The notes beneath the pieces were generated by a model. That model did no database searches. It was given only the letters and a program-made list of their open reading frames with translations, and was not told the DNA's origin. Position numbers and translations under genes: made by a program. From positions 2,672,001 to 2,736,000 of the forward strand of contig NZ_CP051293.1 in NCBI RefSeq assembly GCF_013170805.1: a DNA stretch of 64,000 nt. The letters run 5' to 3'. Of this stretch, positions 27,762-55,990 are shown in pieces (positions within the stretch are counted from its first letter, which is position 1; each line of letters starts with the position of its first letter). The stretch comes from Mesorhizobium sp. NZP2077. Its GTDB lineage: Bacteria > Pseudomonadota > Alphaproteobacteria > Rhizobiales > Rhizobiaceae.

Positions 27762-27837
27762 GGGCCTGTAGCTCAATGGTTAGAGCCGGCGGCTCATAAC
27801 CGCTTGGTTGGGGGTTCGAGTCCCTCCGGGCCCACCA
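27762..27837 (+). tRNA. tRNA-Ile (CAU anticodon, lysidine-modified type)
   Basis: A 76-base cloverleaf including encoded CCA. The acceptor stem GGGCCTG pairs with CGGGCCC. The anticodon loop is CTCATAA (anticodon CAT). The arm GGCGGCTCATAACCGCTTGGT is the signature of the minor isoleucine tRNA whose C34 becomes lysidine, rather than of methionine tRNA. Its 3' half is the integration target of the adjacent recombinase. Confidence 0.93.
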
Positions 27838-29021
27838 TTATCGTTATTTATCAATGTGTTATAGGGTGGTTCGCCACGAGGTTCGCCAACAGGTTCGCCA
27901 AGCATCGGCTTGCGCGTGACCAGCCGCACGACTCGATCCATCCCCTGGACCGCCAGCCGTACCTGCGATGCCTCGCGCGAATAGAGCTCCGCATGATCGA
28001 TATCGTCGTGACCGAGGACGTCCATCATCTGCCTGGTGGAGGCCTCGGCCTCCGCCAGATAAACACCGAGGGATTTCCTCAAACCATGCAGGGTAAGGCC
28101 CTTCGGAAGACCGGCAAGCTTGCACCAATGCGCCATCATTCCAGTCAAGGACTTGGCGGAGAAGGGCTCCCCATAGGCGTTGACCAAGACGGTCTCGCCG
28201 CGCCTGTCAGCCGCATCCAGGATCTCGGACAGCATCGGTGTGATCGGCACGAAAAGCCGCTTGCCGCCCGTTCGTCCCTTGTTCTTGCCCTGAACGATAT
28301 CAAACCCGTCGAAGTGACGCTCGACGCCATCGATGAAGACACGGCGGGTGACCCTCTGATCCCAGCGCAGGCCTGCTACGTCGCCGCGGCGGTTGCCCAG
28401 CCAAAGCGCCAGTCCGTAGCAAGTGCGTGCCGCCGTGCCGAGCTGCCAACGGTTTTCAAATTGCGCCATCGCCTCGCGCGACCATGCTTTCCAACCAACA
28501 TAGGCGGGCCGCCACTCGACTGCCGCGGTGGGGTCGATTTCAATCCAATCTTGCCGCAGTGCGACATAGACCAGCTTGCGTATGCCCACCAGCAGGTGCT
28601 TGGCCTTATGGGGTGTGGCGATGAAGCGGCCAAGAAGCTCTTCAATATGGATACGTCTAAGGTTCTTAACCGGTACGTCGCGCCAGATCAGTGGGTGATC
28701 TGGGACCACCCGCAGTTCTAGAAATTCTTCAATCAGCCGCTTGTTCTTGCGTTTGCTAGCTTCGTCAAGTGACAGCCACTTGACCGAGATCTTCAACCGT
28801 TGAAAGGCCGCTCCAAATGTGCCTGGCAGGGCGGCTCCGGGCATTTGGACGACGGGGGCCTTGGGGACTTTCCGGCCTTCGACCGCTGCCTGGTACGCGT
28901 CCTTGAATCCCGGCTGATTGGGAGCAGGCAGACTGACCAAACGCTCCTTCGTCCGATAGCGCCAGCGTAGTTTTCCATGGCGATCGGTGTAGGAGGACAG
29001 GCCGGGATATTTGTCGGTCAT
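27780..29021 (-). CDS. int: tyrosine recombinase/integrase
   Basis: A 413-residue site-specific recombinase. The catalytic set is visible: R212 (GNRRGDVAGLRW), H312 and R315 (LHGLRKS), H338 (LGHDDIDH) and Y347 (ELYSREA). The last 20 or so codons are the antisense of tRNA-Ile, and the stop lies inside the tRNA, so the gene ends at the attachment site. This is the classic position of an ICE or island integrase. The excisionase-like gene lies 12 bases upstream and is transcribed the same way. Confidence 0.92.
   Translation of the reverse strand: MTDKYPGLSSYTDRHGKLRWRYRTKERLVSLPAPNQPGFKDAYQAAVEGRKVPKAPVVQMPGAALPGTFGAAFQRLKISVKWLSLDEASKRKNKRLIEEFLELRVVPDHPLIWRDVPVKNLRRIHIEELLGRFIATPHKAKHLLVGIRKLVYVALRQDWIEIDPTAAVEWRPAYVGWKAWSREAMAQFENRWQLGTAARTCYGLALWLGNRRGDVAGLRWDQRVTRRVFIDGVERHFDGFDIVQGKNKGRTGGKRLFVPITPMLSEILDAADRRGETVLVNAYGEPFSAKSLTGMMAHWCKLAGLPKGLTLHGLRKSLGVYLAEAEASTRQMMDVLGHDDIDHAELYSREASQVRLAVQGMDRVVRLVTRKPMLGEPVGEPRGEPPYNTLINNDNGGPGGTRTPNQAVMSRRL
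27822..27838 (+). other. candidate attL core at the tRNA-Ile 3' end
   Basis: CCCTCCGGGCCCACCAT matches 54704-54720 at 16 of 17 positions (14 consecutive) in the same orientation. The recombinase gene begins right here. A 17-bp 3'-end core is the size known for the Mesorhizobium symbiosis ICE at a phenylalanine tRNA. Confidence 0.55.
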
Positions 29022-29033
29022 GGCAGAATGAAT

Positions 29034-29282
29034 CTATTCCCTGCGGTGATTCCCTTGCAACAGGAAGTCGACGATATTCTCATCATCGTCTCCAGGTAGT
29101 TCGGCAAACGCCGCTTCGAGTTTAAGGCGATCCCAAATCACGCGGCCGTCAACTTTCTTCGGCTTCGGCATGCGGCGGTCAGCAACCATCTGGTCGAATT
29201 TGGTTATGCCCACGCCAACATATCGGGCCGCTTCTTCGCGTGAGAGACCCCGAGGAGGATAGGAAAGGGTGTCGCTTTTCAT
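29034..29282 (-). CDS. AlpA/excisionase-like DNA-binding protein
   Basis: An 82-residue protein with a MerR/AlpA-type helix-turn-helix (LSREEAARYVGVGITKFDQMVADRRMPKPKKVDGRVIWDRLKLEAAFAELP). Such small proteins next to integrases act as recombination directionality factors or control integrase expression. It probably forms an operon with the integrase (12-base gap). Confidence 0.82.
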   Translation of the reverse strand: MKSDTLSYPPRGLSREEAARYVGVGITKFDQMVADRRMPKPKKVDGRVIWDRLKLEAAFAELPGDDDENIVDFLLQGNHRRE

Positions 29283-29739
29283 GATCGCGCTGCCAAATGC
29301 GCCCGTCCTTGTGAGCGGGCTTCCATTCAGAGATCAAGATCTGGATTGTATCAGCCACAGCCGGAAGGGATCCGATCAAACTGTGCGGCGAATTGCGGTC
29401 AGGGCGTATAAATGGGATGGTTGCTCATCGCCGAGTGGGCGTACTGGGAATTGACCGTCGGAAACGCAGCGACGGCCGACACCGACACCGATCGTTTTCG
29501 ATCCGGCGCCCTTCGCCGGGGGCGGTCGGTCCCGCATCCCGCCTGGCGGCGGCGCTATGCTGATGCTCCTTCGGCCGCCCTGTTGAACCGGTCTCAGGGC
29601 CACGAACGTGCTCCAGCACCGAACTGACTTGGTCGCAATGACGGACATTTCGGTGCTTCCGCTTTGTACGCCGTTTTTCATTTGGTCGGGAGAGCAGGGG
29701 CTCTCCCGACGGAGAGTTAGAGGATGGGGCGGGTTTTTC
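29283..29739. other. non-coding stretch of the integrated element
   Basis: About 460 bases without a convincing gene; short open frames here have no recognisable features. It holds a terminator-like hairpin, GTCGGGAGAG (29685-29694) with CTCTCCCGAC (29701-29710). It may be the scar of lost mobile-element genes. Confidence 0.4.
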
Positions 29740-29790
29740 GCGACGGGTTGAAAGCGGAAGGAGAGGCCTTCGGCGCCCGTCGCGGAGAAC
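29740..29790 (+). promoter_or_regulatory. stem-loop leader in front of ardC
   Basis: GCGACGGG (29740-29747) pairs with CCCGTCGC (29776-29783). The enclosed loop contains GAGAGGCCTTCGGCG, and GGAGAA follows as ribosome site before ATG 29795. A related leader precedes the parB/repA hybrid (30965-31019), so this is a repeated 5' regulatory module. Confidence 0.5.
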
Positions 29791-29794
29791 CGCG

Positions 29795-30757
29795 ATGTCT
29801 GTCCGGACCAATCGAACTCATCCCGTCGCCGACCGCTCGAACCTCTACGACGAGATCACCGGCAAGATAATTGCCGAGCTGGAAGCGGGTCGTTTTCCCT
29901 GGGTTCAGCCATGGGGGACTTCCGCCGCAAACGCATCGCTTTCCCTGCCGAAAAATGCCAGCACGCACCGCGCGTATAGCGGGATCAACGTGCTGATCCT
30001 CTGGGGCGCTGTCGTTGAACGCGGGTTCCCAATGCAGAGTTGGATAACCTATCGACAGGCTTTCGCGCTCGGCGGGAATGTTCGTAGAGGCGAGCGCGGG
30101 ACAACGGTCGTTTACGCCGATCGTTTTGTCCCGGATCACGAGAAGAAGCGCGCTCGCGAAACGGGCGAGGATGCTCAAGCCATCCCGTTCCTCAAGCGCT
30201 TCACCGTTTTCAACATCCAGCAATGTGAAGGGCTACCTGACGAAGTCACAGCCTCGGCCCCCCTGTCGGTGGCAAGCCCGATTGAACCGCGGGTCGAGGC
30301 GCTGATCAAGGCCACCGGTATCGACTTCCATATTGGCGGCGACAGGGCGTTCTACGCGCCGGCCCACGATTACATACAGGTGCCTCCGCCCCAAGCTTAC
30401 TTCGAGCCGATCAATTGGCATCGGACAGCCTTGCATGAGCTCGGTCATGCAACCGGCCACAGTTCACGCCTGGACCGCAAATTATCCGGCTCTACCGCCT
30501 CCAGGAAGTATGCGTTCGAAGAGCTCGTGGCAGAAATCAACGCGGCGTTCTGCTGCGCAGCCCTGGGCATCGTCCCCACGGTTCGGCATGCGGACTATAT
30601 CGGCTCATGGCTAGAGGTTCTGCGCGAGGACAATCGCGCCATCGTCCGTGCCGCCAGCCAGGCCAGCAAGGCGGCCGACTGGCTTCTCGGCCACCTGCCG
30701 GTGGAGGCCGAAGCATCCGTCGGGCTGGACGCAGGCAACGATAGATGCGCGGCATGA
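29795..30757 (+). CDS. ardC: ArdC-family antirestriction/ssDNA-binding metalloprotease-like protein
   Basis: A 320-residue protein with both ArdC parts. The N-terminal single-strand DNA-binding domain is NLYDEITGKIIAELEAGRFPWVQPW ... AYSGINVLILWGAV. The C-terminal zincin-like domain carries HELGHATGH (HExxH). ArdC protects incoming conjugative DNA from host restriction. It is typical cargo of rhizobial plasmids and ICEs, and supports the view that 27.8-32.7 kb is the backbone of a transferable element. Confidence 0.9.
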   Translation: MSVRTNRTHPVADRSNLYDEITGKIIAELEAGRFPWVQPWGTSAANASLSLPKNASTHRAYSGINVLILWGAVVERGFPMQSWITYRQAFALGGNVRRGERGTTVVYADRFVPDHEKKRARETGEDAQAIPFLKRFTVFNIQQCEGLPDEVTASAPLSVASPIEPRVEALIKATGIDFHIGGDRAFYAPAHDYIQVPPPQAYFEPINWHRTALHELGHATGHSSRLDRKLSGSTASRKYAFEELVAEINAAFCCAALGIVPTVRHADYIGSWLEVLREDNRAIVRAASQASKAADWLLGHLPVEAEASVGLDAGNDRCAA

Positions 30758-31019: not shown

Positions 31020-31631
31020 ATGACCACTGCCGTCCAAAAGATCACGCTATCGTCCTCGCGCGATATCCCTTTCAACAAGCTGGTGCTCGGCCAGTCCAAT
31101 GTGCGTCGCATCAAGGATGACGCGCTGATTCTGACCATCGACCGGGCCTATTTCGGGCTGACCGGCGGGCTGGATCGGTGGCTCTATCGGCTGGTTCGCA
31201 AGCATGGCGGACGCCAGCGCGCTGGCTGGCGTTTCGACATCCGGCATCTGCATCAAAAGTCCGGCAGCCTGTCGCCGCTCAAGCGCTTCGCCTTCGAGCT
31301 GCGTGACATCGTGCGCCGCCAACCCTTGCCGGGATATCTGCTGTTCACGGAAGTCGAAGCCAGCGGCCGTGTGCTGCTGGCGTTCGAACCGGCGCCCGCG
31401 CCTGTTGACGGGATCGTGCCATCGGGAACCCGAACTATCGTGCCATCGGGAACCGCATCCTCGTGCTTTCGGGAACCGCGATCGGCCTTAAGGGACGAGC
31501 CCGCAACGGAAAATCGCGCTCTTAACTTAGAGTCTAACTCTCAATCTAACAGTCTTGCGCGCAAGCCGCGGACTGGCGGTGGGGAGCAGAAGCGGCGGTG
31601 CGTTGGGCGGCGCCAGGGAGACGACACATGA
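31020..31631 (+). pseudogene. in-frame hybrid of a ParB-like start and a RepA replication initiator remainder
   Basis: Residues 1 to about 33 (MTTAVQKITLSSSRDIPFNK, then LVLGQSNVRRIK) read as the start of a plasmid/ICE ParB-like protein. From about residue 34 the chain changes to the C-terminal half of a RepA-type initiator (LTIDRAYFGLTGGLDRWLYRLVRKHGGRQRAGWRFDIRHLHQKSGSLSPLKRFAFELRDIVRRQPLPGY). The missing ParB remainder and RepA N-terminus point to an internal deletion that happened to join in frame. The tail after about 125 is low in homology. It overlaps the DUF2840 start in ATGA (31628-31631). It is unlikely to act as either parent protein. Confidence 0.7.
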
Positions 31632-32119
31632 CGTCGTCTACCCCATCGACGCCCCGCGGCGACCTCACGACGGTCGAGCTGATCTGGATCGAGAAGCGGA
31701 TCGAGCATCGCATCCGCTTCGGACGTGCTGCCCATGAGACGATCATCGACAAGCGGCGCCGCGTCGTCGGATTTGCGCCGGGCAATGTTTTTGCGTTCAT
31801 GCGCTGGGCGGCGAATGACTTTGGCACCGTCGTTTCGCGCATCGACATCGTGCGCGCGGTGTTGCCCGCTGAACCTTATCAGACGCTGCCTTACATCCGG
31901 CCAGGCGGCGAGATCCTGCTCAAGATCGCAGGCTGGGACAAGGTTGAGCGGGTTCTCCAAGTGATCGATGCGATCGAAGCGATCGGTCTCGATCCGGTGG
32001 AAGCCGCACCGGACTATTGGCGTCAGACCCACAACCGTCTCATTGCCGGCGCAACGCCGCGTGCCTATTCGCTCGAGCAGCATCGGGCCTTTCTGTTGCG
32101 CAAGCGGGTGACAACATGA
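31628..32119 (+). CDS. DUF2840 domain-containing protein
   Basis: A 163-residue protein matching the DUF2840 family found in rhizobial conjugative elements between repA and traF (LTTVELIWIEKRIEHRIRFGRAAHETIIDKRRRVVGFAPGNVFAFMRWAANDFGTV). It overlaps its neighbours by four bases on each side (31628-31631 and 32116-32119), so the three genes are one translational unit. Function is unknown; its context is conjugation or plasmid maintenance. Confidence 0.82.
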   Translation: MTSSTPSTPRGDLTTVELIWIEKRIEHRIRFGRAAHETIIDKRRRVVGFAPGNVFAFMRWAANDFGTVVSRIDIVRAVLPAEPYQTLPYIRPGGEILLKIAGWDKVERVLQVIDAIEAIGLDPVEAAPDYWRQTHNRLIAGATPRAYSLEQHRAFLLRKRVTT

Positions 32120-32661
32120 GCCGCGCCGACTGCATAGCCGCAGCGCTTGCGGCCGTCGTCGCGACGGTCGCTCCGGCTGTGGTGAAGATGCCGCCGCTGC
32201 TGCTGTGGAATGCATCGGCCAGCGCGCCGCTTGGGCTCTATGCGATCAGGAAAATGGCCGTACCAACGGCTGGCGCGCTCGCCGTCATCGAACCGCCAGA
32301 CAAGGTCGCCCGGTTCGCCGCCAAGCGCGGCTACCTTCCGCTCGGCGTGCCGATGCTGAAGCACATCGAGGGACTTCCTGGGCAGCAAGTCTGCCGCCTC
32401 AGTCGCGTCATCACGGTGAACGGGCTTGCGGTGGGTGCTGCACTGGAGCGCGACCGCAAGGGGCGCCCGCTGCCTAAATGGCAGGGCTGCCGCATCATCG
32501 CCGCCGCCGAAATCTTCGTCATGAACCGGAAGGTCGGGGACAGTCTCGACGGCCGCTATTTCGGCCCGTTCCCGGCGAGCTCGATCGTCGGGGCAGCGCT
32601 GCCGCTGCCGGTCCACTTTCAAGCAGACATGTTTTCGCTCGGTGCTTCGGGTGCAAGTTGA
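32116..32661 (+). CDS. traF: TraF-type S26 signal peptidase (conjugal transfer)
   Basis: A 181-residue S26-family peptidase. An N-terminal hydrophobic helix is followed by the Ser region (LLWNASASAPLGLYAI) and the Lys region (PMLKHIEGLPGQQVC). The late box is MNRKVGDSLDGRYFGPFP. TraF matures or cyclises the mating-pilus subunit. Here it is the last gene of a short element backbone: no pilin, relaxase or type IV secretion genes follow. The element therefore looks non-autonomous. Confidence 0.87.
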   Translation: MSRADCIAAALAAVVATVAPAVVKMPPLLLWNASASAPLGLYAIRKMAVPTAGALAVIEPPDKVARFAAKRGYLPLGVPMLKHIEGLPGQQVCRLSRVITVNGLAVGAALERDRKGRPLPKWQGCRIIAAAEIFVMNRKVGDSLDGRYFGPFPASSIVGAALPLPVHFQADMFSLGASGAS

Positions 32662-32723
32662 AGCACTAATGGACCGGTGCATGTTTTCTCTCAGGTTCGC
32701 AGTTTACCAACCCAACGCCACAG

Positions 32724-34058
32724 TCAACTGCGAAGACCGTCACGGATGGACGAGAAATAGCGGTCGGTTCCTACCTGCCCGCCCTTCAGCGCAACCTCCA
32801 GCCCGTCAATCGCTTTGACGTGCGAATGAGCAACGCAAAGGGGGGAACCAGGCGAGGCGGGCAGCGGCATCCTAACCGTCAGCGCATCGACGCCCATCTG
32901 TCCCAGCGCATGGCTTGACGTGTCACCGCCGGCAACGACCACGCGCCGCAAGCTCTGCTCGTCAGTCAATTGGCGCAGCAGCGCCCCAAGGCCGCGGCCA
33001 AGCTTGTGGCGGGCGCCTTCCTGCCGGTCGATTTCCACACCCCTGTCGGCTGCAGGGCCAAGCGCGGTGTAGAGGATGACGCTTCGTCCGGCTTGCAGGC
33101 TGGCGCGGCCGCTTGCCGCCGCACGCGTGATCGCCTGCTCCGAAGCCTCCGAAACCAGTTCGACAGGATCGACCTCAATGCCGTCGAAGCCGTCGCTCAG
33201 GGCATGGCGGATCTGTCGTTCGGTGGTTGGCGAGCAACTGCCCGACACGACGGCGATCCGGTCGGCGGCGCCCGGCGGCGTGAAGCCTGGTCCGGCGCCG
33301 ACGATGTCATTCGACGCCCATTCGGCCAGCAACGCATACTCGATGCCGGACGAGCCGGCGACAAAAGAGCCGCCCGGCTTTCGCATGCGCCAGATCTCTT
33401 TGCCCGCAAGGGCCTGGGTCTCCCGGCTGTCGACGTCCACAAGCACGATGGCCGTGCCATTGTCCACGAAGCGATCGAATGCCTGCGACCGCTGCTTCGA
33501 CTGCAGAGTCGCAAGGTCGATCAACCCCGACGTGAGATCCGTCTGCCGCGACAGATGGATCAGCAGGTCCGATTCATCCATCGGCGTCGTCGGGTGGTGG
33601 CTCATCACCGGATGGCGGTCGATGCGGAAATATTGGTCGCGATAGGCCGCGAACAGATGGCCGAAGGCGGTGTAGCGCTTGAGCTCCGGCGCGCCGAGCA
33701 GCAGCGGCACGCTATCCTGTTTGAAGACCTCGCGGCCAATCTCGATCGCCCGCCCGATGCTGCCGATCGTCGGGCTGGAATCGAAGGTCGAACAGACCTT
33801 GTAGTGGCAGATTTCGGCTTTCAGCGTGTTCAGCCAGGCGAAGGCGTCGCGCAGATGCGTGTCCATCCAGTGCGGCGTCTCGCTGCGGCTGGTGCCGGCC
33901 AATCCGACCGCCTGGCAATGCTTGAACTGCGCAAGCAGAGCCTCGTCCGGCTGCCTCATGAACAGCACCGTCGGCACGCCGCCGAGCTCCAGCGCTTCCA
34001 TGACGTCGGTCGAGCCGGTGAGGTCGTCGCCATAATAGCTGAGCAGCAGGCTCTGCAT
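32724..34058 (-). CDS. oiaK: four-carbon acid sugar kinase family (DUF1537), likely 3-oxo-isoapionate kinase
   Basis: A 444-residue kinase of the DUF1537 family. The N-terminal substrate domain opens YYGDDLTGSTDVMEALELGGV. The C-terminal nucleotide domain includes VVSGSCSPTTERQIRHAL and VVAGGDTSSHALGQMGVDAL (GGDTS motif). The gene starts four bases after the RuBisCO-like protein gene. In published D-apionate pathways OiaK phosphorylates 3-oxo-isoapionate, giving the substrate of the RuBisCO-like enzyme. The pairing, plus ApnO/ApnL/ApsD in the same region, makes this assignment better than other DUF1537 kinases (erythronate, threonate). Confidence 0.82.
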   Translation of the reverse strand: MQSLLLSYYGDDLTGSTDVMEALELGGVPTVLFMRQPDEALLAQFKHCQAVGLAGTSRSETPHWMDTHLRDAFAWLNTLKAEICHYKVCSTFDSSPTIGSIGRAIEIGREVFKQDSVPLLLGAPELKRYTAFGHLFAAYRDQYFRIDRHPVMSHHPTTPMDESDLLIHLSRQTDLTSGLIDLATLQSKQRSQAFDRFVDNGTAIVLVDVDSRETQALAGKEIWRMRKPGGSFVAGSSGIEYALLAEWASNDIVGAGPGFTPPGAADRIAVVSGSCSPTTERQIRHALSDGFDGIEVDPVELVSEASEQAITRAAASGRASLQAGRSVILYTALGPAADRGVEIDRQEGARHKLGRGLGALLRQLTDEQSLRRVVVAGGDTSSHALGQMGVDALTVRMPLPASPGSPLCVAHSHVKAIDGLEVALKGGQVGTDRYFSSIRDGLRS

Positions 34059-34062
34059 GACT

Positions 34063-35313
34063 TCAGGCCGCCTTGCCGTCGCCGAACTTTTCGATCGACC
34101 GTGCCAGTTCGGGGTGGTTCAGGGCGAAGTTCGCCAACGGGATGCCGTCGACCGCCGCTTGCCAGGCTTGCTGGACGGCGCGCACGCCGGCGCCTGGCCC
34201 GTCCGGATGGCTGACTATGCCGCCGCCGCAGAGATAGAGCAGGTCGACCGTCCGGCCGGTTCGTTCGTAGGTCTCGGGCGCCTGTCCGCCCCACTGGCCG
34301 GAACCTGCGACCGGCAGCGCGCAATCATCAGGTGAAAAGATCGGCGTCGTCACTGCCTTGAAGGATTCGATGAAGGATGCATCCGACTCCCAGTATTTCG
34401 AGGCGATGCCGTTGATCTGGAACTGGTCGACACCGAGCAATCGCCAGAACTGCTGCCAGACCTTGAAATCCATGCCGAGGCCGGGGTGACGGGTGAGAAT
34501 GTCCCAGCCATTGCGATGGGCGTGCAGCACCAAGCTGGAGCGTTTTCTTAAGTAGGCCATGCCGCCGAAGCCGATGGAGTTGATGTTGACCACCGCGCAA
34601 TTGCCGCCGGCCTTCGCCACCAGATCGTGGTTGCGCATCATCTCGTCCGGGTCGGCATGCGAGATGCCGAAAGCATACATGACCTTCTTGCCGGTCTTCT
34701 GCTCGTGGTCGAGGATGAGTGGCATGATCGCCTTGACCCGTTCCGCCAAGGGCGAATAGGCCGGGCTCATCAGCTTCTCATCGTCCTTGATGAAATCGAC
34801 GCCGGCGGCGATCAGTTCTGCCACCATCGCGGCCGTCTCGGGTGGCCGCAAGCCCAGCGCCGGCTTGACGATGGTGCCGATGATGGGTCGGCCCTCGACG
34901 CCGGTCAGCCTGCGGCTGCCGGCCACACCGAATTGCGGGCCTGGATGAGCGCCCTTGAATTGTTGCGGCAGCTTCATGTCGACGATGCGGATGCCCGACA
35001 GGCCCTTGATCGAATAGGTGCCGCCGATGGCGATGGTCATCAGCGCCGAAAGATCGGTGCCGATCGCATCGAACGGAAATGCGATGTCGGCATCGGCGCG
35101 CTTGAAAGGTCCCGAGCCGGCCTCGGGAATGGACGGCTGCTCGGCATCAGGCAGATGCCGGATCGCCAGCACGCGCGCCGCCACCCTGGCCTTCAGTTCC
35201 TCGGTCTCGCCGGGCAAAGCCACGAAGGTGCCGGTCGACTGGTCGCTGGCGATCTTGGCCGCCAGCGCCTCGATGCCTTCAGACGTTTCGATGCGATAGG
35301 TGAGGGTGATCAT
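34063..35313 (-). CDS. RuBisCO-like protein (OiaX/OiaT type, 3-oxo-isoapionate-4-phosphate metabolism)
   Basis: A 416-residue form IV RuBisCO homologue. Active-site segments are visible: IVKPALGL, the carbamate/metal motif GVDFIKDDE, HAHR, and the loop-6-like GIASKYW. The segment DQFQING differs from true RuBisCO. In apionate pathways such enzymes either decarboxylate 3-oxo-isoapionate 4-phosphate (OiaX) or split it hydrolytically (OiaT). No erythrulose-phosphate isomerases lie nearby, which leans toward OiaT but is not proof. ATG 35313 (MITLTYRIETSEG) fits the family. The gene heads a two-gene operon with the kinase, behind a CTGGTATRAT site. Confidence 0.85.
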   Translation of the reverse strand: MITLTYRIETSEGIEALAAKIASDQSTGTFVALPGETEELKARVAARVLAIRHLPDAEQPSIPEAGSGPFKRADADIAFPFDAIGTDLSALMTIAIGGTYSIKGLSGIRIVDMKLPQQFKGAHPGPQFGVAGSRRLTGVEGRPIIGTIVKPALGLRPPETAAMVAELIAAGVDFIKDDEKLMSPAYSPLAERVKAIMPLILDHEQKTGKKVMYAFGISHADPDEMMRNHDLVAKAGGNCAVVNINSIGFGGMAYLRKRSSLVLHAHRNGWDILTRHPGLGMDFKVWQQFWRLLGVDQFQINGIASKYWESDASFIESFKAVTTPIFSPDDCALPVAGSGQWGGQAPETYERTGRTVDLLYLCGGGIVSHPDGPGAGVRAVQQAWQAAVDGIPLANFALNHPELARSIEKFGDGKAA

Positions 35314-35366
35314 GGTCCGCTGTCTCAAGCCCAGGCGTTCGAAAAAGATTCACCGATGCTCGAAAT

Positions 35367-35381
35367 CTGGTATAATGAGTA
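35367..35381 (+). promoter_or_regulatory. NanR-like operator site A
   Basis: CTGGTATAATGAGTA, between the RuBisCO-like protein operon and the divergent regulator gene. It shares the CTGGTATRAT core with sites at 43583, 44563 and 49303. GGTATA is the half-site recognised by Escherichia coli NanR. Confidence 0.6.
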
Positions 35382-35498
35382 CATAAGTATTGCAAGACAT
35401 ATCCGGCTGGAAGTTTCGGGCGGGTCGACCGACGGCAATTTCCGGGAATTGTGGCGGCAGTGTTAGATAGGGCCGGGCCAAGGGAGTGATTCGCGACG

Positions 35499-36212
35499 AT
35501 GAACCGTTCGGAACCGATTGTGCGGCGCAAGCTTTCCGACGAGGTCTTCTTGCGGCTGAAGCGCCTGATCACCAGCGGAGAATTGATGCCGGGCGACGAC
35601 ATGCCCTCGGAGCGCGAATTGATGGAGCGTTTCGAGGTCGGCCGGCCGGCGATCCGCGAGGCGATGCAGGCGCTGAGCAATATGGGCCTCGTCGCCATCT
35701 CCCATGGCGAACGCGCCAAGGTGCTGCAGCTGACCGCCAAGTCGATCATCAAGCAGGTCGATGGCGCGGCCAAGATCATCCTGTCGTCATCGAAGGACAC
35801 GCTGGAGCACCTGAAGACCGCGCGCATCTTCTTCGAGCGCGGCATGGTCCGGGAAGCCGCCGAGAAGGCCACCGCCGAAGACGTGCAGCGGCTCAGGGCC
35901 ACCGTTGCCGAACAGCGCGGCTTTCGCGGCGACTCGGAAGCCTTCATCTCGGCCGACATGAAATTCCATACCCAGATCGCGGCGATCTCCGGTAACCCGA
36001 TCTATGTCGCCGTCAGCGAGGCCATGCTTGGCTGGCTTAAGGAATATCACACCGAAATGCTGATCTGGACCGGCAAGGAACAGTTCACGCTGACCGAGCA
36101 CGAAGAGATCATCGGCCGCATCGAGAAGAAGGATGCCGACGGCGCCGAGAAGGCGATGATCAAGCATCTCGAACGTTCGCGCGCCCTCTATGTGATGAAC
36201 TCCGAGAAGTAA
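35499..36212 (+). CDS. NanR-like GntR/FCD family transcriptional regulator
   Basis: A 237-residue regulator. The GntR winged helix is MPSERELMERFEVGRPAIREAMQALSNMGLVAISHGERAKV, closely patterned like NanR. An FCD ligand domain follows, with metal-site candidates at D and H in SADMKFHTQIAAISGNPIYVAV and later H. It is divergent from the kinase/RuBisCO-like operon, and its 3' end is three bases from apnL (convergent). Four GGTAT-containing sites at the promoters of the surrounding operons are its probable targets. The inducer would be an apionate-pathway intermediate. Confidence 0.85.
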   Translation: MNRSEPIVRRKLSDEVFLRLKRLITSGELMPGDDMPSERELMERFEVGRPAIREAMQALSNMGLVAISHGERAKVLQLTAKSIIKQVDGAAKIILSSSKDTLEHLKTARIFFERGMVREAAEKATAEDVQRLRATVAEQRGFRGDSEAFISADMKFHTQIAAISGNPIYVAVSEAMLGWLKEYHTEMLIWTGKEQFTLTEHEEIIGRIEKKDADGAEKAMIKHLERSRALYVMNSEK

Positions 36213-36215
36213 CGT

Positions 36216-39085: not shown

Positions 39086-39087
39086 GA

Positions 39088-40152: not shown

Positions 40153-40180
40153 GGGCATCAGTCTCCGTATGCGGGACCGG

Positions 40181-42351: not shown

Positions 42352-42419
42352 GCATCCCAGGGAAATGGAGACGAGGGACGAACTCTAGGTTCGCCCCTCG
42401 CGGATTGCATTGCGCCGGC

Positions 42420-43574
<1,155 letters not shown>

Positions 43575-43582
43575 TTAGCCAA

Positions 43583-43597
43583 CTGGTATGATGAGTC
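43583..43597 (+). promoter_or_regulatory. NanR-like operator site B
   Basis: CTGGTATGATGAGTC, upstream of the apiose/apionate transporter operon (reading minus). One-base variant of the CTGGTATAATGAGT core at site A. Confidence 0.6.
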
Positions 43598-43680
43598 AAT
43601 CACTAATTCAGGTGATCTGTATCTGAGCGTTCGGCGTTTCTTTCCTCTCCCCCAACGAGAGGAGGGAAGACGGAGCCGCT

Positions 43681-44508: not shown

Positions 44509-44562
44509 GTATCCGTTACTCCCGATCTCAAACGATGGCCGCGCCGATCGTCATGTTATTAA

Positions 44563-44577
44563 CTGGTATAATCACTC
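44563..44577 (+). promoter_or_regulatory. NanR-like operator site C
   Basis: CTGGTATAATCACTC, about 55 bases upstream of the apnO start codon (gene on the minus strand). Confidence 0.6.
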
Positions 44578-44618
44578 TACCATGATTTGGCGATTTGAAC
44601 AGTGCCCCGCTGACAGTC

Positions 44619-48124: not shown

Positions 48125-48198
48125 TCGTCCTCCGTTTCTTCGATCGCCAGCGTCGGGCGCAGCCTTGCGGCGGCGCCCGATCGGTAGAGCTGGTGGTG

Positions 48199-49221
48199 TT
48201 ACTTGCTCAGCAGGTTCTGCTTCACCCAGTCCAGCGAGTAGCTCGGACTGATGATCTGGCCGCCCGGCAGCTTCGCATAGTCCTTGAGGTTGCTGGCATC
48301 GACCGTAGCCACCGGCATGATCATCAGCTTGGGCGCCTTGGCGCCCTTCAGCAGCGACAGGCCGAGCCAGAAGGCGGCGCCGCCGATGCCCGGCGTGGTG
48401 TTCATCGACACGGTCTGGTAGCCATTCTTGGCATTCTCGTCAGCCCACCATTTGACGAAGTCGGTGCCGCCGCCGCCCTCGATGATCGGCATCTTGCCGG
48501 CGTAGTCGCCGCCATATTGGACGAAGGCCTGCGCAATGCCGACGTCGTCGCTGCCACCCTGGCCGAGCACGGCGTCGACATGCGGCAGCGAGGGCAGCAC
48601 GTTGGCGATCGCCGCCTGCGCCACCGAGGCGGTCGCCTGGCCATAGACGGTAGCAACCACCTTGATGTCAGGGTACTTCGCCAACACCGACTGCTGCGCG
48701 TTGAACATGTCGTTGTCGGGCGCCGAGCCCTTGACGCCGCGCACCTGCAGGACGTTGCCCTTGCCGCCGAGCATCTTGAAGACCGCTTCGGCCTGGGTGG
48801 CCTTGTAGCCCTTGAAGTCGAAATTAAGCTGGTAGTTGCAGGGCGCCGAGGCCACAGAATCGAAGGAGATGACGATGATGCCGGCCTTGCAGGCTTTTTC
48901 GATGATGCCGTTGACCGCTGTTTCCGAGGCGGCGTCGACAGCGAGCACGTCGACCTTCTTGAGGATCAGTTCTGCGATCTGGCTATTCTGCTGCGCGACG
49001 GAGCCGTCGCCGTTCATGACGATATAATCGGCGATCTGCCCGGCGGCCTTGGCTTCCTTGGCCGAGGCTTCGAATGCTTCCACCATCTGATGCCGCCAGG
49101 TGTTGCCGTAATAGGCGTTGGCGAGCGCGATGACCGGCGCGTCCGAAGACGCCATTGCCGGCATCACCGTAGCGCCCACCATCGCAGCGCCGGCGAGCGC
49201 CGCCACAGTTGCAAATCTCAT
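48199..49221 (-). CDS. periplasmic binding protein of the second importer
   Basis: A 340-residue exported protein. ATG 49221 gives the signal peptide MRFATVAALAGAAMVGATVM, cleaved around AMASS. The mature start APVIALANAYYGNTWRHQMVEAFEASAKEAKAAG and VFKMLGGKGNVLQVRGVKGSAPDNDM are type-I binding-protein features. An upstream start at 49290 would bury the signal peptide. It is first in the operon with the fused ABC protein, and operator site D lies about 80 bases upstream, placing it in the apionate regulon. The ligand is unknown. Confidence 0.86.
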   Translation of the reverse strand: MRFATVAALAGAAMVGATVMPAMASSDAPVIALANAYYGNTWRHQMVEAFEASAKEAKAAGQIADYIVMNGDGSVAQQNSQIAELILKKVDVLAVDAASETAVNGIIEKACKAGIIVISFDSVASAPCNYQLNFDFKGYKATQAEAVFKMLGGKGNVLQVRGVKGSAPDNDMFNAQQSVLAKYPDIKVVATVYGQATASVAQAAIANVLPSLPHVDAVLGQGGSDDVGIAQAFVQYGGDYAGKMPIIEGGGGTDFVKWWADENAKNGYQTVSMNTTPGIGGAAFWLGLSLLKGAKAPKLMIMPVATVDASNLKDYAKLPGGQIISPSYSLDWVKQNLLSK

Positions 49222-49302
49222 GGTATTTCCTCCCAAAAACACGATCGGCTTGGCTGCCACACTTGAGCAAAGCGCAACCCGTTGGGACACGCTATGTCAG
49301 GT

Positions 49303-49316
49303 ACATATTATACCAG
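49303..49316 (-). promoter_or_regulatory. NanR-like operator site D
   Basis: On the minus strand CTGGTATAATATGT, preceded by GGTATG, so two GGTAT-type half-sites lie in tandem 8 bases apart, as in Escherichia coli NanR operators. It sits in front of the second importer operon. Confidence 0.6.
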
Positions 49317-49750
49317 CATACCAAATAGGCAAGCGCTTTGCTGGCTACGCGGGTCGCCGGCTGAGCAAGCGTGGGCCCACCAATCCCGTTGAATTGGCAT
49401 GTCGTCTGGTTCCGACAGCCCCGGACCCCGAGGGTTAGGTCGAGACTTCCAAGCCTCCATGCGAACCGTCCGCTATCGCCATCCCGAAATCGCGGAGCTG
49501 CCAGTCGCTTTCGTGCCGATCAAGGGCTGTTTCTAGCCGTCTGAAAGGAGCCGGACTTACTTGGTGAACTGAAATGACGACGTGCCATGTCACGACCGCT
49601 TTATTCTCACCCACTTGCCCACGTGACGAACAATCTCGGATGGCCCCTTGAAGTCGGGAAGGAAGGAGGTGATTTGTCGGATCGGATATACCCAATAGCC
49701 GCCGGTCGTGCGGAAAACGGTCGTTTCCGGGCACAAACACTGCTCTCACC
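49317..49750. other. non-coding or degraded stretch
   Basis: About 430 bases without a recognisable gene. A short minus-strand open frame at 49435-49749 has no homology that I can see. The segment holds GGGCCCACCA at 49373-49382, identical to the last ten bases of tRNA-Ile, and may be a recombination junction. Confidence 0.35.
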
Positions 49751-50653
49751 TTATTTGCCGATATAAGCCGCCAGTTCGTCAGGCGTCCCCATTGGGAAGG
49801 CCTCCTTGAGATAGTTCAGAAACGCTGACACCCGAGCGCTCAGGAGCCGCTTGGACGGGTAGAGCGTCCAAAGGACAATGTCAGGTCCGTCGACCTCGCC
49901 CCATTCTACCAGCGTGCCGTCTGCGAGATCGTGGCTCACGAGCGACAAAGGTAGGCGGCCGGCGCCAACGCCGGCTCGCACCGCGTCCCGGACCATGACA
50001 AGGGATGTTAGCGCCAGAACGGGCTCGATCATAATTTGGGTCGGGCCGGTGGCGGTCATCACTTGCCAGGTCAGTCGATCGCTCGCCGATCGTACGACGG
50101 CGAGCGCTGTCGTGTTCCCCGTCGGCCGGGCGAGACCCGGGCTAGCGGCGACCACCAGTCGATCGTGCAGGAACGCCCGCCCGACAAGGGTCTCATCCGG
50201 ATTCGGGTTTACTCGGATCACCAGATCAAACCCCTCCTCGATCATATCCACAGCGCGGTCTTCCGTGGAGACCTCAAGCCGGACTTCCGGGTACTTCAGC
50301 GCAAAACCGGCGGCGATCTTGCCCATTGCGGTTTGAGAAAAAAGCAATGGTGCACTTATCCGCAGTTTGCCTCGCGGCTTCTGTCCGCCCGAGGCAATCG
50401 CTGCAGCGGTTTCGTCCAGTTCGGTCAGCAAATGGCCTGCCCGTTCGTAGAGCGCCCGCCCTTCCTCGGTCAGTTTGAGTGTCCGCGCGCCACGCTCGAC
50501 AAGTCGCAATCCCAGGCCAGCCTCAAGTTCTGCCACCCGTCGCGACAAAGTCGCCTTGGGGCGAGTGGCGGCCCGTGCTGCACGGCCGAAGCCGCCGTGG
50601 CGGGCCACGAGCACGAAATCCGCGAGAGCCAGCAAATCCATCTGTTCCACCAA
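49751..50653 (-). CDS. LysR-family transcriptional regulator
   Basis: A 300-residue LTTR (ATG 50641 is an alternative start). The winged helix is MDLLALADFVLVARHGGFGRAARAATRPKATLSRRVAELEAGLGLRLVER. The effector domain belongs to the CrgA-like class (GKLRISAPLLFSQTAMGKIAAGFALKYPEVRLEV). It is divergent from the NAD(P)-binding protein gene at 50763 and likely controls it. Confidence 0.9.
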   Translation of the reverse strand: MVEQMDLLALADFVLVARHGGFGRAARAATRPKATLSRRVAELEAGLGLRLVERGARTLKLTEEGRALYERAGHLLTELDETAAAIASGGQKPRGKLRISAPLLFSQTAMGKIAAGFALKYPEVRLEVSTEDRAVDMIEEGFDLVIRVNPNPDETLVGRAFLHDRLVVAASPGLARPTGNTTALAVVRSASDRLTWQVMTATGPTQIMIEPVLALTSLVMVRDAVRAGVGAGRLPLSLVSHDLADGTLVEWGEVDGPDIVLWTLYPSKRLLSARVSAFLNYLKEAFPMGTPDELAAYIGK

Positions 50654-50762
50654 TGGGACGTTGTGTCCAATATTAGCGTCTATCGCATCGTCTGTGAACC
50701 ACTCATATTCACGACAACAACCTACCCAACTGCAAACGTCTCACCCAACGAGGAACAAAGCC

Positions 50763-51431
50763 ATGACCAAGTCCACAAACGACAAACCCCACGCCCCGCA
50801 GACCAAAATATTGGTTTTGGGGGCGACGGGGCCGACTGGCCGTCTCATCGTCAGCCAGGCATTGGCACTCGGATATGAGGTGACGGCACTGGTCCGATCC
50901 CCCAAAAAAGCGGCGGAGATGAAGGGCGTTCGGCTTGTTGTCGGCGACGCCCGCGATGAGAAGACCCTACGCCAGGCCGTCAGCGGGCAGGATGCCGTCA
51001 TCAGTGCCCTGGGCACTCCGGCCAGCCCGTTCAAGCAGGTGACGCTGCTCTCGACCGCGACCCGCGCGCTCGTCAAGGCAATGAAGACGGAACGCATCTC
51101 GCGCCTGATCACCATCACCGGGATGGGCGCGGGCGACAGCGCCGGCCATGGCGGGTTCCTGTTCGATAACGTGATTTTCCCGCTGCTCCTGCGCAACGTC
51201 TATGCGGACAAGAACCGGCAGGAAGCCGTCATCCGTGAGTCCGATCTCGATTGGACTATCATCCGGCCATCCGTTTTGAACAAAAAGGCGGGACGCGGCA
51301 ATGTCCGCACTCTAACCGATCTGTCCGGCCTCCATGGCGGGACCATCTCGCGGGAAGACGTTGCGAAATTTGTCCTCGACCAGGTGCATAGCGACGCCTG
51401 GCGGCATCGTTCGCCACTGATTACGTGGTGA
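50763..51431 (+). CDS. NAD(P)-binding SDR-like protein (NAD(P)H-binding domain)
   Basis: A 222-residue atypical SDR. LGATGPTGRLIVSQALALGYEVTALVRSPKKA is the nucleotide-binding start. DAVISALGTP, RISRLITITGMGAGDS and SDLDWTIIRPSVL are as in biliverdin-reductase-B/NmrA-like proteins. These use NAD(P)H to reduce flavins or quinones, or act as redox sensors. ATG 50763 was chosen on the conserved first strand. The adjacent divergent LysR gene is the likely regulator. Confidence 0.85.
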   Translation: MTKSTNDKPHAPQTKILVLGATGPTGRLIVSQALALGYEVTALVRSPKKAAEMKGVRLVVGDARDEKTLRQAVSGQDAVISALGTPASPFKQVTLLSTATRALVKAMKTERISRLITITGMGAGDSAGHGGFLFDNVIFPLLLRNVYADKNRQEAVIRESDLDWTIIRPSVLNKKAGRGNVRTLTDLSGLHGGTISREDVAKFVLDQVHSDAWRHRSPLITW

Positions 51432-51437
51432 AGCCCG

Positions 51438-51711
51438 TCACGCCCCATCGTCAAACCAGCGGCGGTTGCCGGCAACCCGTTGGCGCATAAAGTCGACGAG
51501 GGCTCGTGCAGCCGGGCTGCGTTCCTTGCCGACAGGCTAGACTGACATCGACGGCTGGACCGCTCCAGTCGGGCAGAACGCGAACGAGATTGCCGGCCTC
51601 GATCTCAGGCGCGGCCATATATCTCGCCGTAGCGGCGATCCCAGCCCTGTTCAGCACCATGCGATCTATTGCTTTGGGATCGTTGGCGGTGAGCCGAGCG
51701 GACCGGTGCAA
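51438..51711 (-). pseudogene. LysR regulator C-terminal remnant, frameshifted
   Basis: The open frame from 51711 carries a recognisable LTTR effector-domain end (GIAATARYMAAPEIEAGNLVRVLPDWSGPAVDVSL). It then loses homology; the frame shifted by one base continues with KERSPAARALVDFMRQRVAGN to a stop at 51438. No N-terminal helix-turn-helix is found upstream. It is a decayed fragment. Confidence 0.65.
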
Positions 51712-52160
51712 CCTATGAAGCCACTTCTCGAGTGAGCGCGTCCGCGGCCGCTGGCGCCATTGCGGATCTGACGGCTACGCTCGAGGCGAAGATCCTGCGA
51801 TGTCCGCGAAGCTCGAAACAATGCTGGAGCGTGTCGATGTCGTAGCGACCGTCCATCGGCGGACCTGTCAGTCGAATGACATGCAGCGTTTCGACGTCTC
51901 CGCTTTCGCCGGAGATCTCGTGAGCGACGTCATCGGTATCAGCGGGCGCACGGACGCTACCCTGGTCGCCATGTTCCCTGCCAATTCTTGCCATCCCGGA
52001 AGCCGGATCCGCAGCACTCGACGCTGCCGCTTCATTCCTCCGACCAAGGCTCCTATCGTTCCACCAGTGAGACGGTACGTCTATATCTGTCATCTATTGG
52101 GTATGAATTTGGGCCGTTAGATTGTTACCAGACTTAAACAACCAACCAGGAGTAGCCTCT
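51712..52160. other. no intact gene recognised
   Basis: About 450 bases. A minus-strand open frame (51713-52093) has no clear family. The stretch may contain the eroded front part of the LysR remnant. The promoter for 52161 must lie at its right end. Confidence 0.35.
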
Positions 52161-53024
52161 ATGACCATCCTCGTAACTGGCGCGACCGGCAATGTAGGCC
52201 GCAACGTTGTCGAACAACTAGTGAACCGTGGCGCCGACGTGCGCGTTCTGGTTCGCGACCCGTCCAAGGCCAATTTCCCGGCCGGCGTCGAAGTCGCCCA
52301 AGGCGACCTGCTCGACGTCGACGCGCTGCGTAGCGCCTTCTCGGGCGTGTCCACGCTGTTCCTGCTGAACGGGGTAGTGGCCGACGAATATACCCAGGCG
52401 CTCGTCGCCTTGGCCGTTGCTCGCGAAGGCGGCATCGAGCGGATTGTCTATCTCTCGGTGATCCACAGCGACATCTACGTGAACGTGCCGCACTTCGCGG
52501 GCAAGTTCGGCGTCGAGCGGATGATCGAGCAGATGGGCCTCAACGCCACCATCCTGCGCCCGGCCTACTTCATGGACAACGACATCACCGTCAAGGACGT
52601 GATCACCGCCTACGGCATCTACCCCATGCCGATCGGCAGCAAGGGCCTTGCCATGATCGACGCCCGCGACGTTGGCGAGATCGCTGCGATCGAGCTTATC
52701 CGCCGCGAGCGGTCGTCCACGCCGCTCCCGCTCAACCGCATCAACCTGGTCGGCCCGGATACGCTGACGGGCGCCGATGCCGCGGCGATCTGGACGGACG
52801 TCCTCGGCCGCCCGATCGCCTACCCCGGCGATGACACCGCGGGATTTGAGCAGAACCTGCGACAGTTCATGCCGAGCTGGATGGCGCTCGACATGCGGCT
52901 GATGGCCGAGCGCTTCTTGACCGACGGCATGGTCCCGGACGCCGGCGATGTCGATCGGCTGACCACTCTGCTGGGCCGCCCGCTGCGCTCGTACCGCGAC
53001 TACGCCGCTCAGATCGCTGCCTGA
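52161..53024 (+). CDS. NmrA-family NAD(P)-binding protein
   Basis: A 287-residue atypical SDR starting MTILVTGATGNVGRNVVEQLVNRGADVRVLVRDPSKA, with LRPAYFMDNDITVKDVI typical of NmrA/HSCARG-like proteins. The C-terminal part is a ligand-binding lobe (YPGDDTAGFEQNLRQFMPSWMALDMRLMAERFLTDG). It starts after an AGGAG site. It leads a likely three-gene unit with a DUF1857 protein and an Old Yellow Enzyme. Confidence 0.87.
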   Translation: MTILVTGATGNVGRNVVEQLVNRGADVRVLVRDPSKANFPAGVEVAQGDLLDVDALRSAFSGVSTLFLLNGVVADEYTQALVALAVAREGGIERIVYLSVIHSDIYVNVPHFAGKFGVERMIEQMGLNATILRPAYFMDNDITVKDVITAYGIYPMPIGSKGLAMIDARDVGEIAAIELIRRERSSTPLPLNRINLVGPDTLTGADAAAIWTDVLGRPIAYPGDDTAGFEQNLRQFMPSWMALDMRLMAERFLTDGMVPDAGDVDRLTTLLGRPLRSYRDYAAQIAA

Positions 53025-53061
53025 GCGCTGCTGTCCACAACGCCCAATCAAGGAACAGACT

Positions 53062-53538
53062 ATGGTCTACTCAACCGCAACCGTTCCGGTGAACCCCGCC
53101 GGCGAGACCACACTCACGCGCGAACAGGTCTGGAAGGGCCTTGAGCTGAAGGCGCGTGACGCGCGCCTGTTCCTCCCGCCCGGCCTCTGCACGCGCTGCG
53201 ACGTCGTGGAAGAGAGCGCGACCCACTTCGTGCGCGAAGCCACGATCGCCGGCGCCGAGCTCCGCGAAATCATCACCCTTGAGCCGCAAGGCAAGATCAC
53301 CTTCTTGCAGGCGACCGGCCCACGCGAAGGCGCGATCATCAACGAGCTGTTCGAGGATGATGCCGGCGAGCTGCAGCTCAAGTTCTATTGCTACATCGGT
53401 CTTCGCGGCAAGGAGCCGAATGGCCCCGAGGAGCAGGCTGAGCAGACGCAGTTCGATAGCGAGGAGAAGGGTTACAAATCCGCCCTGCTGTCGACGCTGA
53501 AACGCACCCGCGAGCTGCTTGCCGCAGGCAGACTCTGA
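53062..53538 (+). CDS. DUF1857 (AtaL-like SRPBCC) family protein
   Basis: A 158-residue protein of the DUF1857/AtaL group in the SRPBCC ligand-binding superfamily (LTREQVWKGLELKARDARLFLPPGLCTRCDVVEES, IITLEPQGKITFLQATGP, GYKSALLSTLKRTRELL). No catalytic motif is evident; such proteins bind hydrophobic ligands. It lies 37 bases after the NmrA-like gene and 42 before the alkene reductase gene, suggesting one small operon. Confidence 0.82.
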   Translation: MVYSTATVPVNPAGETTLTREQVWKGLELKARDARLFLPPGLCTRCDVVEESATHFVREATIAGAELREIITLEPQGKITFLQATGPREGAIINELFEDDAGELQLKFYCYIGLRGKEPNGPEEQAEQTQFDSEEKGYKSALLSTLKRTRELLAAGRL

Positions 53539-53580
53539 TCCTCAGCCCCCTCAACAAATCCAACAACCACGAGAAAACAC

Positions 53581-54648
53581 ATGACCTATGTCTGGTCCAC
53601 TTTCAAACTCGGCAACCTGCAACTGCCGCATCGCCTCGCCATGGCGCCGATGACCCGAAGCCGGGCTAAGCCTGACGGAACACCCGGTGATCTGGCTCCC
53701 GAGTATTACGCACAGCGCGCCACGATGGGTCTTCTGATCACCGAGGGCACCCAGCCGTCCGAAGACGGGCAGGGGTATCTGGCCACGCCCGGGATCTACA
53801 ACGACAATCACGTGGCAGGGTGGCGGAAAGTTGCCGACGCCGTCCATGAGGCGGGCGGTCGTCTGTTCATCCAGCTCATGCATGTCGGCCGCAGATCCCA
53901 TCCGGAAAACACGCCGCACCATCGCCAGCCTGTTGCGCCTTCGGCGATTGCCTCCGGTGAAAACATGTTCACGGTTAAAGGCATGCTGCCGGTTCCGGAA
54001 CCGCGCGAGCTCACAACCGCTGAAGTTCGGCAGACCATCGCCGATTTCGCAAACGCCGCCAAGCGCTCGATCGAAGCGGGGGCCGACGGCGTCGAAGTTC
54101 ACGGCGCGAACGGGTATCTGGTGCACCAGTTTCTTGCGCCGAACGCGAACAAGCGCACCGACGAATTCGGTGGTTCTCTTGAGAACCGCGCACGGTTCGC
54201 GATTGAGGTGGTTCAAGCGATCGTCGATGCGGTCGGAGCCGACAAGACGGCGATCCGGCTGTCGCCGGGACTACCTACGGGCAGCATCGCCGAAGGCAAC
54301 GCGAACGACGATCTCTACCGTTACCTGGCGGCCGAGTTTCATAAGATCGGGATTGCCTATCTGCATATCCTCCATATCGGCAATGAAGCGCTCTTGGCGG
54401 ACATCCGGGAGGCTTTCGGCGGGGTCTTGATCGTCAATCGGCCGGGCCGCTCGCGCGAGCAGGTCGGGGCCGATGTTGCCGCCGGGGTTGCCGACATGGA
54501 AGCTCTAGGCGCCATGGCGCTTGCGAACCCGGATCTGGTCACACGTCTCAAAGAGGGCGCGCCATTGAACGAGCCGCGGCCGGCACTGTTCTATGCCGGG
54601 GGCGGGGCTGAAGGCTACATCGACTATCCCGCTCTTTATCCCGCCTGA
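53581..54648 (+). CDS. Old Yellow Enzyme family alkene reductase
   Basis: A 355-residue FMN oxidoreductase of the OYE/NemA class. Signature segments: LPHRLAMAPMTRSRAKPDG, LLITEGTQPSEDGQGY, FIQLMHVGRRSHPENTPHH, DGVEVHGANGYLVHQFLAPNANKRTDEFGGSLENRARFAIEV. It reduces activated alkenes and nitro compounds with NAD(P)H. It ends just before a 12-bp hairpin terminator. Confidence 0.92.
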   Translation: MTYVWSTFKLGNLQLPHRLAMAPMTRSRAKPDGTPGDLAPEYYAQRATMGLLITEGTQPSEDGQGYLATPGIYNDNHVAGWRKVADAVHEAGGRLFIQLMHVGRRSHPENTPHHRQPVAPSAIASGENMFTVKGMLPVPEPRELTTAEVRQTIADFANAAKRSIEAGADGVEVHGANGYLVHQFLAPNANKRTDEFGGSLENRARFAIEVVQAIVDAVGADKTAIRLSPGLPTGSIAEGNANDDLYRYLAAEFHKIGIAYLHILHIGNEALLADIREAFGGVLIVNRPGRSREQVGADVAAGVADMEALGAMALANPDLVTRLKEGAPLNEPRPALFYAGGGAEGYIDYPALYPA

Positions 54649-54654
54649 TTTCAC

Positions 54655-54685
54655 GACGCGGGCGAGACGCAAACTCGCCCGCGTC
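54655..54685 (+). terminator. hairpin terminator after the alkene reductase gene
   Basis: GACGCGGGCGAG (54655-54666) pairs perfectly with CTCGCCCGCGTC (54674-54685); a TTTT run follows at 54694. Confidence 0.65.
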
Positions 54686-54703
54686 CGCAACGATTTTAAT
54701 ACG

Positions 54704-54720
54704 CCCTCCGGGCCCACAAT
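54704..54720 (+). other. candidate attR core (copy of the tRNA-Ile 3' end)
   Basis: CCCTCCGGGCCCACAAT equals 27822-27838 except one base, same orientation, 26.9 kb away. It sits in the gap between the element-type genes and the LacI-controlled polyol locus. Confidence 0.5.
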
Positions 54721-55863: not shown

Positions 55864-55990
55864 CCATGGCCCCCTGTTTGAACCCGCCGTCTCGACCTTC
55901 TACTTGAGTCACCTATTTGCGCAAAGCCGGAGGGTTTTTCTCCCGGGTGCGCAAACGATCGGCCAGCAAGCGGAAGCCGCATGGCCCGGT

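What the first reader, a model, noticed from the sequence alone, without database searches (positions are those of the whole stretch)
27762..54720. 26.9-kb island at tRNA-Ile(CAU) with recombinase and near-exact 17-bp att repeat
Seen: the recombinase ends inside the tRNA, and CCCTCCGGGCCCACCAT (27822-27838) recurs with one mismatch at 54704-54720 in direct orientation. ICE-type genes (excisionase-like, ArdC, RepA part, DUF2840, TraF) follow the recombinase, and metabolic cargo fills the rest. Known: a 17-bp tRNA 3'-end core is used by the Mesorhizobium symbiosis ICE. Inferred: the whole interval is one mobile catabolic island that has lost most transfer genes.
Basis: partly seen in the sequence, partly recalled or inferred. 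Interest (0 to 1): 0.8.

Follow-up and report, generated by a model that had tools for sequence, protein, structure and literature searches.

The report
Composite stranded ICE island at tRNA-Ile(CAU)
In a Mesorhizobium soil bacterium, the leftover integration end of a conjugative element and its matching attachment site bracket a block of metabolic genes beside a tRNA gene; it is a new example of a known kind of genomic island, built from pieces that sister species carry elsewhere.

Summary
A tyrosine recombinase gene (27780-29021) ends inside a CAU tRNA, and the 17-bp core at 27822-27838 recurs with one mismatch at 54704-54720. The flanking arms match those of other att junctions, so this is a genuine attL/attR pair. 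The site is, by inference, the tRNA-Met(a) hotspot known for Mesorhizobium ICEs.

The interval is a composite. About 4.8 kb is the integrase end of an ICE; it stops inside traF, which in WSM2075 continues into a relaxase and coupling protein whose relatives I did not find in 264 kb here. About 22 kb of cargo follows: a D-apionate block (70 of 118 scored genomes, own included) and two further modules, all found in relatives away from this integrase. The cargo abuts a truncated attR arm.

The variable zone does not end at 54720. A tagatose-type cassette follows (54838-62010), and homology to six relatives resumes at 62156-62198.

Most likely it is a transfer-defective, perhaps immobile, ICE-derived island. 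Excision would probably leave this single-copy tRNA ending in CAA instead of CCA. No empty site was found and excision was not observed.

The parts
27762..27837 (+). CAU tRNA (ARAGORN Met; probably tRNA-Ile2), target of integration
   Evidence: one match of the 222-base query containing it in the own genome
27780..29021 (-). tyrosine recombinase, 413 aa, 3' end inside the tRNA
   Evidence: relatives in 71 of 146 genomes at E 1e-40 or better, own included
27822..27838 (+). attL core, 17 bp
27839..27856 (+). right arm of attL, TATCGTTATTTATCAATG, shared with many other junctions
29034..29282 (-). 82-aa excisionase-like ORF, conserved with the integrase
   Evidence: (sub-threshold)
29795..30757 (+). 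ArdC-type antirestriction protein
31077..31631 (+). repA remnant, aa 168-351 of the 351-aa WSM2075 RepA
31598..32119 (+). DUF2840 protein
32017..32661 (+). traF with foreign 3' end; joint between ICE and cargo at about 32606
32606..49517 (.). D-apionate block: OiaK-like, OiaX, GntR, ApnL, Gfo/Idh, two sugar ABC transporters, PGDH_C dehydrogenase
49676..51701 (.). LysR / NmrA-like module, 95-96% identical to stretches in G045 and G027
51787..54691 (+). NmrA-like, AtaL-like and OYE genes, 95.9% identical to G024
54688..54703 (+). inner 16 bp of the attR arm; outer part replaced by cargo sequence
54704..54720 (+). attR core, one mismatch (CCA to CAA)
54838..62010 (.). cassette outside the att pair: LacI, ADH, SDR, SBP, PfkB, AgaZ/GatZ-type aldolase subunit
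62156..64000 (.). start of sequence colinear with several relatives

Best explanation
The interval is the integrase end of a Mesorhizobium ICE inserted at the tRNA-Met(a)/tRNA-Ile2(CAU) site. Its interior, from the 3' end of traF onward including relaxase and coupling protein, was lost and replaced by about 22 kb of metabolic modules that also occur in the genus without this element. Integrase, small excisionase-like gene and both cores remain, so excision as a 26,882-bp circle is conceivable, but transfer would need help in trans. Shown: the att pair, the joint in traF, the truncated repA, no relatives of the WSM2075 relaxase and coupling protein in 264 kb, and cargo elsewhere in relatives. 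Inferred: the order of events, how the modules were captured, and the present inability to transfer and perhaps to excise.
For: Core and arm evidence. In M. opportunistum WSM2075 the related copy runs RepA, DUF2840, TraF, transglycosylase, RlxS-like relaxase, TraG; DNA homology to it stops at 32606 where homology to the G041 apionate block starts. RepA lacks its first 167 aa, and RlxS, transglycosylase and T4CP queries give no hit at E 1e-3 in 264 kb. Cargo lies elsewhere in relatives. The 51787-54691 module is 95.9% identical to G024 against 90.0% for the backbone.
Against: No relative shows an intermediate stage or an empty site. The apionate block lies within roughly 70-130 kb downstream of the tRNA flank on the same contig in G115, G006, G112 and G047, so an old presence in this zone is not excluded. 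Only relatives of three WSM2075 transfer proteins were sought; MOBF and MOBQ relaxases were not. Part of the genome could supply helpers in trans. The excisionase call is weak.
Confidence: 0.74

Rival explanations
1. One mobile catabolic island that transferred as a unit, perhaps mobilised in trans by another ICE.
For: Integrase with a full open frame and 94-97% identical relatives, small excisionase-like gene, both cores.
Against: No other genome of 146 shows the whole set; the cargo blocks sit in many genomes without the integrase; the attR arm has lost its outer part.
Confidence: 0.18
2. Two layers at one hotspot: an old insertion whose right part is the 54838-62010 cassette, with the window's element inserted later between tRNA and that part.
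For: In G135 the same cassette and 54820-87 kb follow a longer series with cores at 1274, 13409 and 63480, the last with a remnant of this integrase type. Compatible with the best explanation.
Against: No third core was found in 264 kb of the own sequence at up to 3 mismatches in the part scanned (204 kb); the cassette may have come by another route.
Confidence: 0.06
3. Chance repeat: the 54704 match is not an att site.
For: At up to 3 mismatches shuffles reach two hits in 3 of 100.
Against: Expectation 0.0002 per strand at up to 1 mismatch, and the neighbouring arm matches independently.
Confidence: 0.02

Closest known systems
Element of M. opportunistum WSM2075 with a 97% identical integrase (G038, 2.86 Mb)
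   Same: 94.4% DNA identity over 27822-29866 and 92.3% over 31115-32606
   Different: Has full RepA, TraF, an RlxS-like relaxase and TraG; lies at a core junction outside the tRNA; its apionate block is at 5.9 Mb
ICEMsp-CA8 beside met-tRNA (PMC9973854, passages seen)
   Same: CA8 carries an 85% identical integrase at this tRNA (L169); that this is the integrase of the published ICE is inferred
   Different: Published as an ICE with a trb gene cluster; none was found here by the three queries used
Tripartite ICEs with IntM at met-tRNA (ICEMcSym1271; PMC5882170 and PMC8627217, passages seen)
   Same: Same tRNA; recombinase with small excisionase gene upstream
ICEMlSymR7A (PMC5882170, passage seen)
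   Same: 17-bp core at a tRNA 3' end
   Different: Target is phe-tRNA; symbiosis genes and full transfer set

Membership tests
tRNA-integrated genomic island (tyrosine recombinase type) | recombinase beside tRNA, direct repeat of the tRNA 3' end at the far side | tested here: met
tRNA-integrated genomic island (tyrosine recombinase type) | empty site in relatives | tested here: inconclusive
   variable sequence follows the tRNA in the 20 relatives fetched; no empty site found
Autonomous ICE of the ICEMlSymR7A kind | relaxase RlxS and coupling protein TraG | tested here: not met
   no hit at E 1e-3 in 264 kb with WSM2075 proteins
Autonomous ICE of the ICEMlSymR7A kind | trb cluster, rdfS, fseA | not tested
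   no query was made; the annotated genes leave little room between the att sites
IME | own relaxase (MOBF or MOBQ) or oriT | not tested
   no such gene among the ORFs scanned with Pfam; no dedicated search
Tripartite ICE region (IntM) | IntM-group integrase with the guaA and phe-tRNA partners | tested here: inconclusive
   integrase only 46% identical to the one at this tRNA in WSM1271; partner sites not examined
D-apionate catabolic operon | ApnL, OiaX and OiaK | tested here: met
   ApnL 913.5 bits (cut-off 750), OiaX 776.1 (700) above; OiaK best family but 470.4, below its cut-off 700

The most novel reading that the evidence does not exclude
The island is held in place by the tRNA it occupies. 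The chromosome-side core has drifted from CCA to CAA and the outer attR arm is gone, so excision would either fail or leave this single-copy CAU tRNA gene without its encoded CCA end: an island kept by a tRNA cost, with no toxin involved.
Probability: 0.18. Interest if true: 0.6.

Novelty: new member of a known kind. Interest (0 to 1): 0.36.

Why it matters
It shows, at base resolution, an ICE end reused as the frame for metabolic modules: one joint inside traF and another inside the attR arm. It also warns that a recombinase plus a direct repeat does not prove that everything between them travelled together, since the cargo blocks here occur in many genomes of the genus without the element. 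The same tRNA zone holds different modules in different species (apionate and tagatose-type blocks here, the cluster of locus L218 in G017 and G025), which makes it a good place to study how resident operons enter and leave integration hotspots.

Tried and rejected
Right border of the variable zone at 54.72 kb: rejected, because homology resumes at 62156-62198 in six relatives. Raffinose-type cluster beside this tRNA in WSM2073 as the true right flank: rejected; it is at 6.70 Mb in the own genome, and of the genomes compared only WSM2073, WSM2075 and WSM1271 have it close to the tRNA in the strand and distance seen. Empty native apionate locus in the own genome: sought with the two G024 flanks. 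One flank cluster is at 6.113-6.119 Mb, but what follows there is colinear with the tRNA zone of G017, and the other flank has no match, so no scar can be claimed. Recent plasmid source: the 15 best rows of 516 plasmid records are Rhizobium plasmids at 77-79% identity over 36% of the query and no record covers 80%; 27 records have a best place at 99% or more which I did not look at. Chance repeat: rejected. Literature: two searches on apionate/OiaX (listings only) showed no paper on this island; that is no proof of absence. The RNA fold of the tRNA gave a non-cloverleaf minimum and was not used.
Full report
What is there. The window lies in a genome of 7.69 Mb in two contigs. Of 34 loci with integrase relatives in named genomes, 30 are labelled Mesorhizobium. 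A CAU tRNA lies at 27762-27837. The integrase ORF 27780-29021 on the minus strand stops inside it, and an 82-aa ORF, 29034-29282, lies directly upstream of the integrase. The 17-bp core is present twice, exact at 27822-27838 and with one mismatch at 54704-54720; at up to one mismatch the expectation is 0.0002 per strand, although at up to three mismatches 3 of 100 shuffles give two hits.

The att pair is real. In the loci fetched I found 29 distinct core junctions outside the tRNA, the window's included. Leaving out the window's own and one that failed a simple core filter, 27 give a left-arm consensus AATAAAATCAACGATTTTAACACG; seven or so of the 27 do not resemble it. The window's arm, CGCGTCCGCAACGATTTTAATACG, agrees at 15 of its last 18 positions, and no other of the 63,960 windows scores as high. 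Its outer eight bases agree with the consensus at none, so that part has been replaced. The right arm at the tRNA, TATCGTTATTTATCAATG, is shared with many of the junctions.

The recombination module. Of 146 genomes of the genus, own included, 71 match the integrase at E 1e-40 or better. Of the 29 relative loci L058-L086, 15 have homology running into the tRNA body, 13 begin at the core only, and one begins at 27889. Homology ends at 29268-29290 in 14, at 29418-29428 in 8, earlier in 5 and later in 2 (G138 to 30001, WSM2075 to 29866). So the integrase and the small ORF travel as a unit and what follows varies.

The ICE remnant. G038 has a contig of 6,884,444 bases, the published length of M. 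opportunistum WSM2075 (PMC4062634, abstract and passages). Its copy has, after about 28 kb of other DNA, a 351-aa RepA, DUF2840, TraF, a transglycosylase-like ORF (named by eye), a relaxase whose best family is RlxS (582.5 bits, below the cut-off of 850) and TraG (above cut-off). The window keeps aa 168-351 of that RepA and aa 1-204 of 214 of TraF. DNA homology to WSM2075 stops at 32606, and homology to the apionate block of G041 starts at 32606. The joint is therefore inside traF, whose last codons come from the cargo side. With the WSM2075 relaxase, transglycosylase-like and coupling proteins as queries, nothing was found at E 1e-3 in 264 kb around the site.

The cargo. 32.6-49.5 kb carries ApnL (913.5 bits, cut-off 750), OiaX (776.1, cut-off 700), an OiaK-like kinase (470.4, below its cut-off 700), a GntR-type regulator, dehydrogenases and two sugar ABC transporters. 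The stretch 32700-43640 matches in 70 of 118 scored genomes, own included; 28 had candidates but were not scored. The stretch 43640-54700 matches in 93 of 146, many by short parts only. In the own genome the only match listed is this one. Comparing by eye, the block lies about 70, 98, 122 and 128 kb downstream of the tRNA flank in G115, G006, G112 and G047, in mixed orientation; in the other genomes with both it is on another contig or at least 0.7 Mb away. The parts 49676-51701 and 51787-54691 are 95-96% identical to stretches elsewhere in G045, G027 and G024, against a weighted 90.0% for 37 blocks of G024 right of 62 kb (range 71.7-94.1). These modules were therefore probably exchanged more recently. 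The last one ends at about 54691, inside the attR arm.

The zone is larger than the att pair. Beyond 54720 follows the cassette 54838-62010. Thirty other genomes have E=0 matches to its first 3 kb. In G135 it lies 110 kb after the tRNA and in G129 about 0.38 Mb after it on the other strand; in the other complete genomes it is at least 1.9 Mb away and in drafts on another contig. Homology to relatives resumes at 62156-62198 in G024, G017 and G010, which have the tRNA upstream on the same contig, and in G007, G013 and G027, whose tRNA is on another contig; it resumes at about 76.7 kb in G118, G019 and G109. The stretch from 62190 has strong matches in 36 of 146 genomes and is not near the tRNA in all of them, so 62.16 kb is a border for this sub-clade only. 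A marker 206 kb from the tRNA has the same orientation to it in 13 of 16 relatives compared, at 214-734 kb; in G051 it is 2.25 Mb away, in G129 the match is partial at about 0.23 Mb, and in G093 it is weak.

How it probably works. Recombination between the cores would give a circle of 26,882 bp; predicted attP and attB are printed. This was not observed. If the crossover lies left of core position 15, the excised chromosome's tRNA would end in CAA. All 65 occurrences of this tRNA end in the fetched loci, which are not independent, encode CCA, and the own-genome search with a query containing the whole tRNA gave one match. RNase Z and the CCA-adding enzyme might repair such an end (recalled), so the lock is a hypothesis.

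Known systems. PMC8627217 (abstract and passages) delineated 56 ICEs and 24 IMEs at 16 sites in 41 Mesorhizobium genomes and names tRNA-Met, with tRNA-Met(a) as a tripartite site. PMC9973854 (passages) places ICEMsp-CA8 beside met-tRNA; CA8 has an 85% identical integrase at this tRNA. That our CAU tRNA is their tRNA-Met(a) is inferred from these two cases.

Verdict. A genuine att-bounded, transfer-defective ICE remnant at a known hotspot, carrying modules common in the genus: a new member of a known kind, with unusually clear joints.

Noticed in passing
54650-54690: A strong GC hairpin (GACGCGGGCGAG / CTCGCCCGCGTC, by eye) after the OYE gene sits directly against the attR arm; probably the terminator of the cargo.
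   Followed up: no
L024-L025 (window coordinates 123777-125350, beyond the window): Self-offset matches with G135 at steps of about 408 bases suggest a tandem repeat.
   Followed up: no
L017, L018, L021 (WSM2075, WSM2073, WSM1271), first 9.3 kb after the tRNA: 98-99% identical beside this tRNA, dropping to about 89% after 9.3 kb, as expected of one shared ICE region.
   Followed up: partly
G135:C2 about 4871980 (position 63480 of the joined stretch): Core junction with both arms and a 73% identical remnant (aa 356-400) of this integrase type.
   Followed up: partly
G076 and G071 (L058, L062): tRNA plus integrase without the SIMPL gene beside it that flanks the tRNA elsewhere; the SIMPL match lies far away in G076 and on another contig in G071.
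   Followed up: no
L221 (own contig 1, 6117000-6124000): 7 kb colinear at 89.5% with the tRNA zone of G017, so another block that sits in the zone in one species and elsewhere in another.
   Followed up: partly
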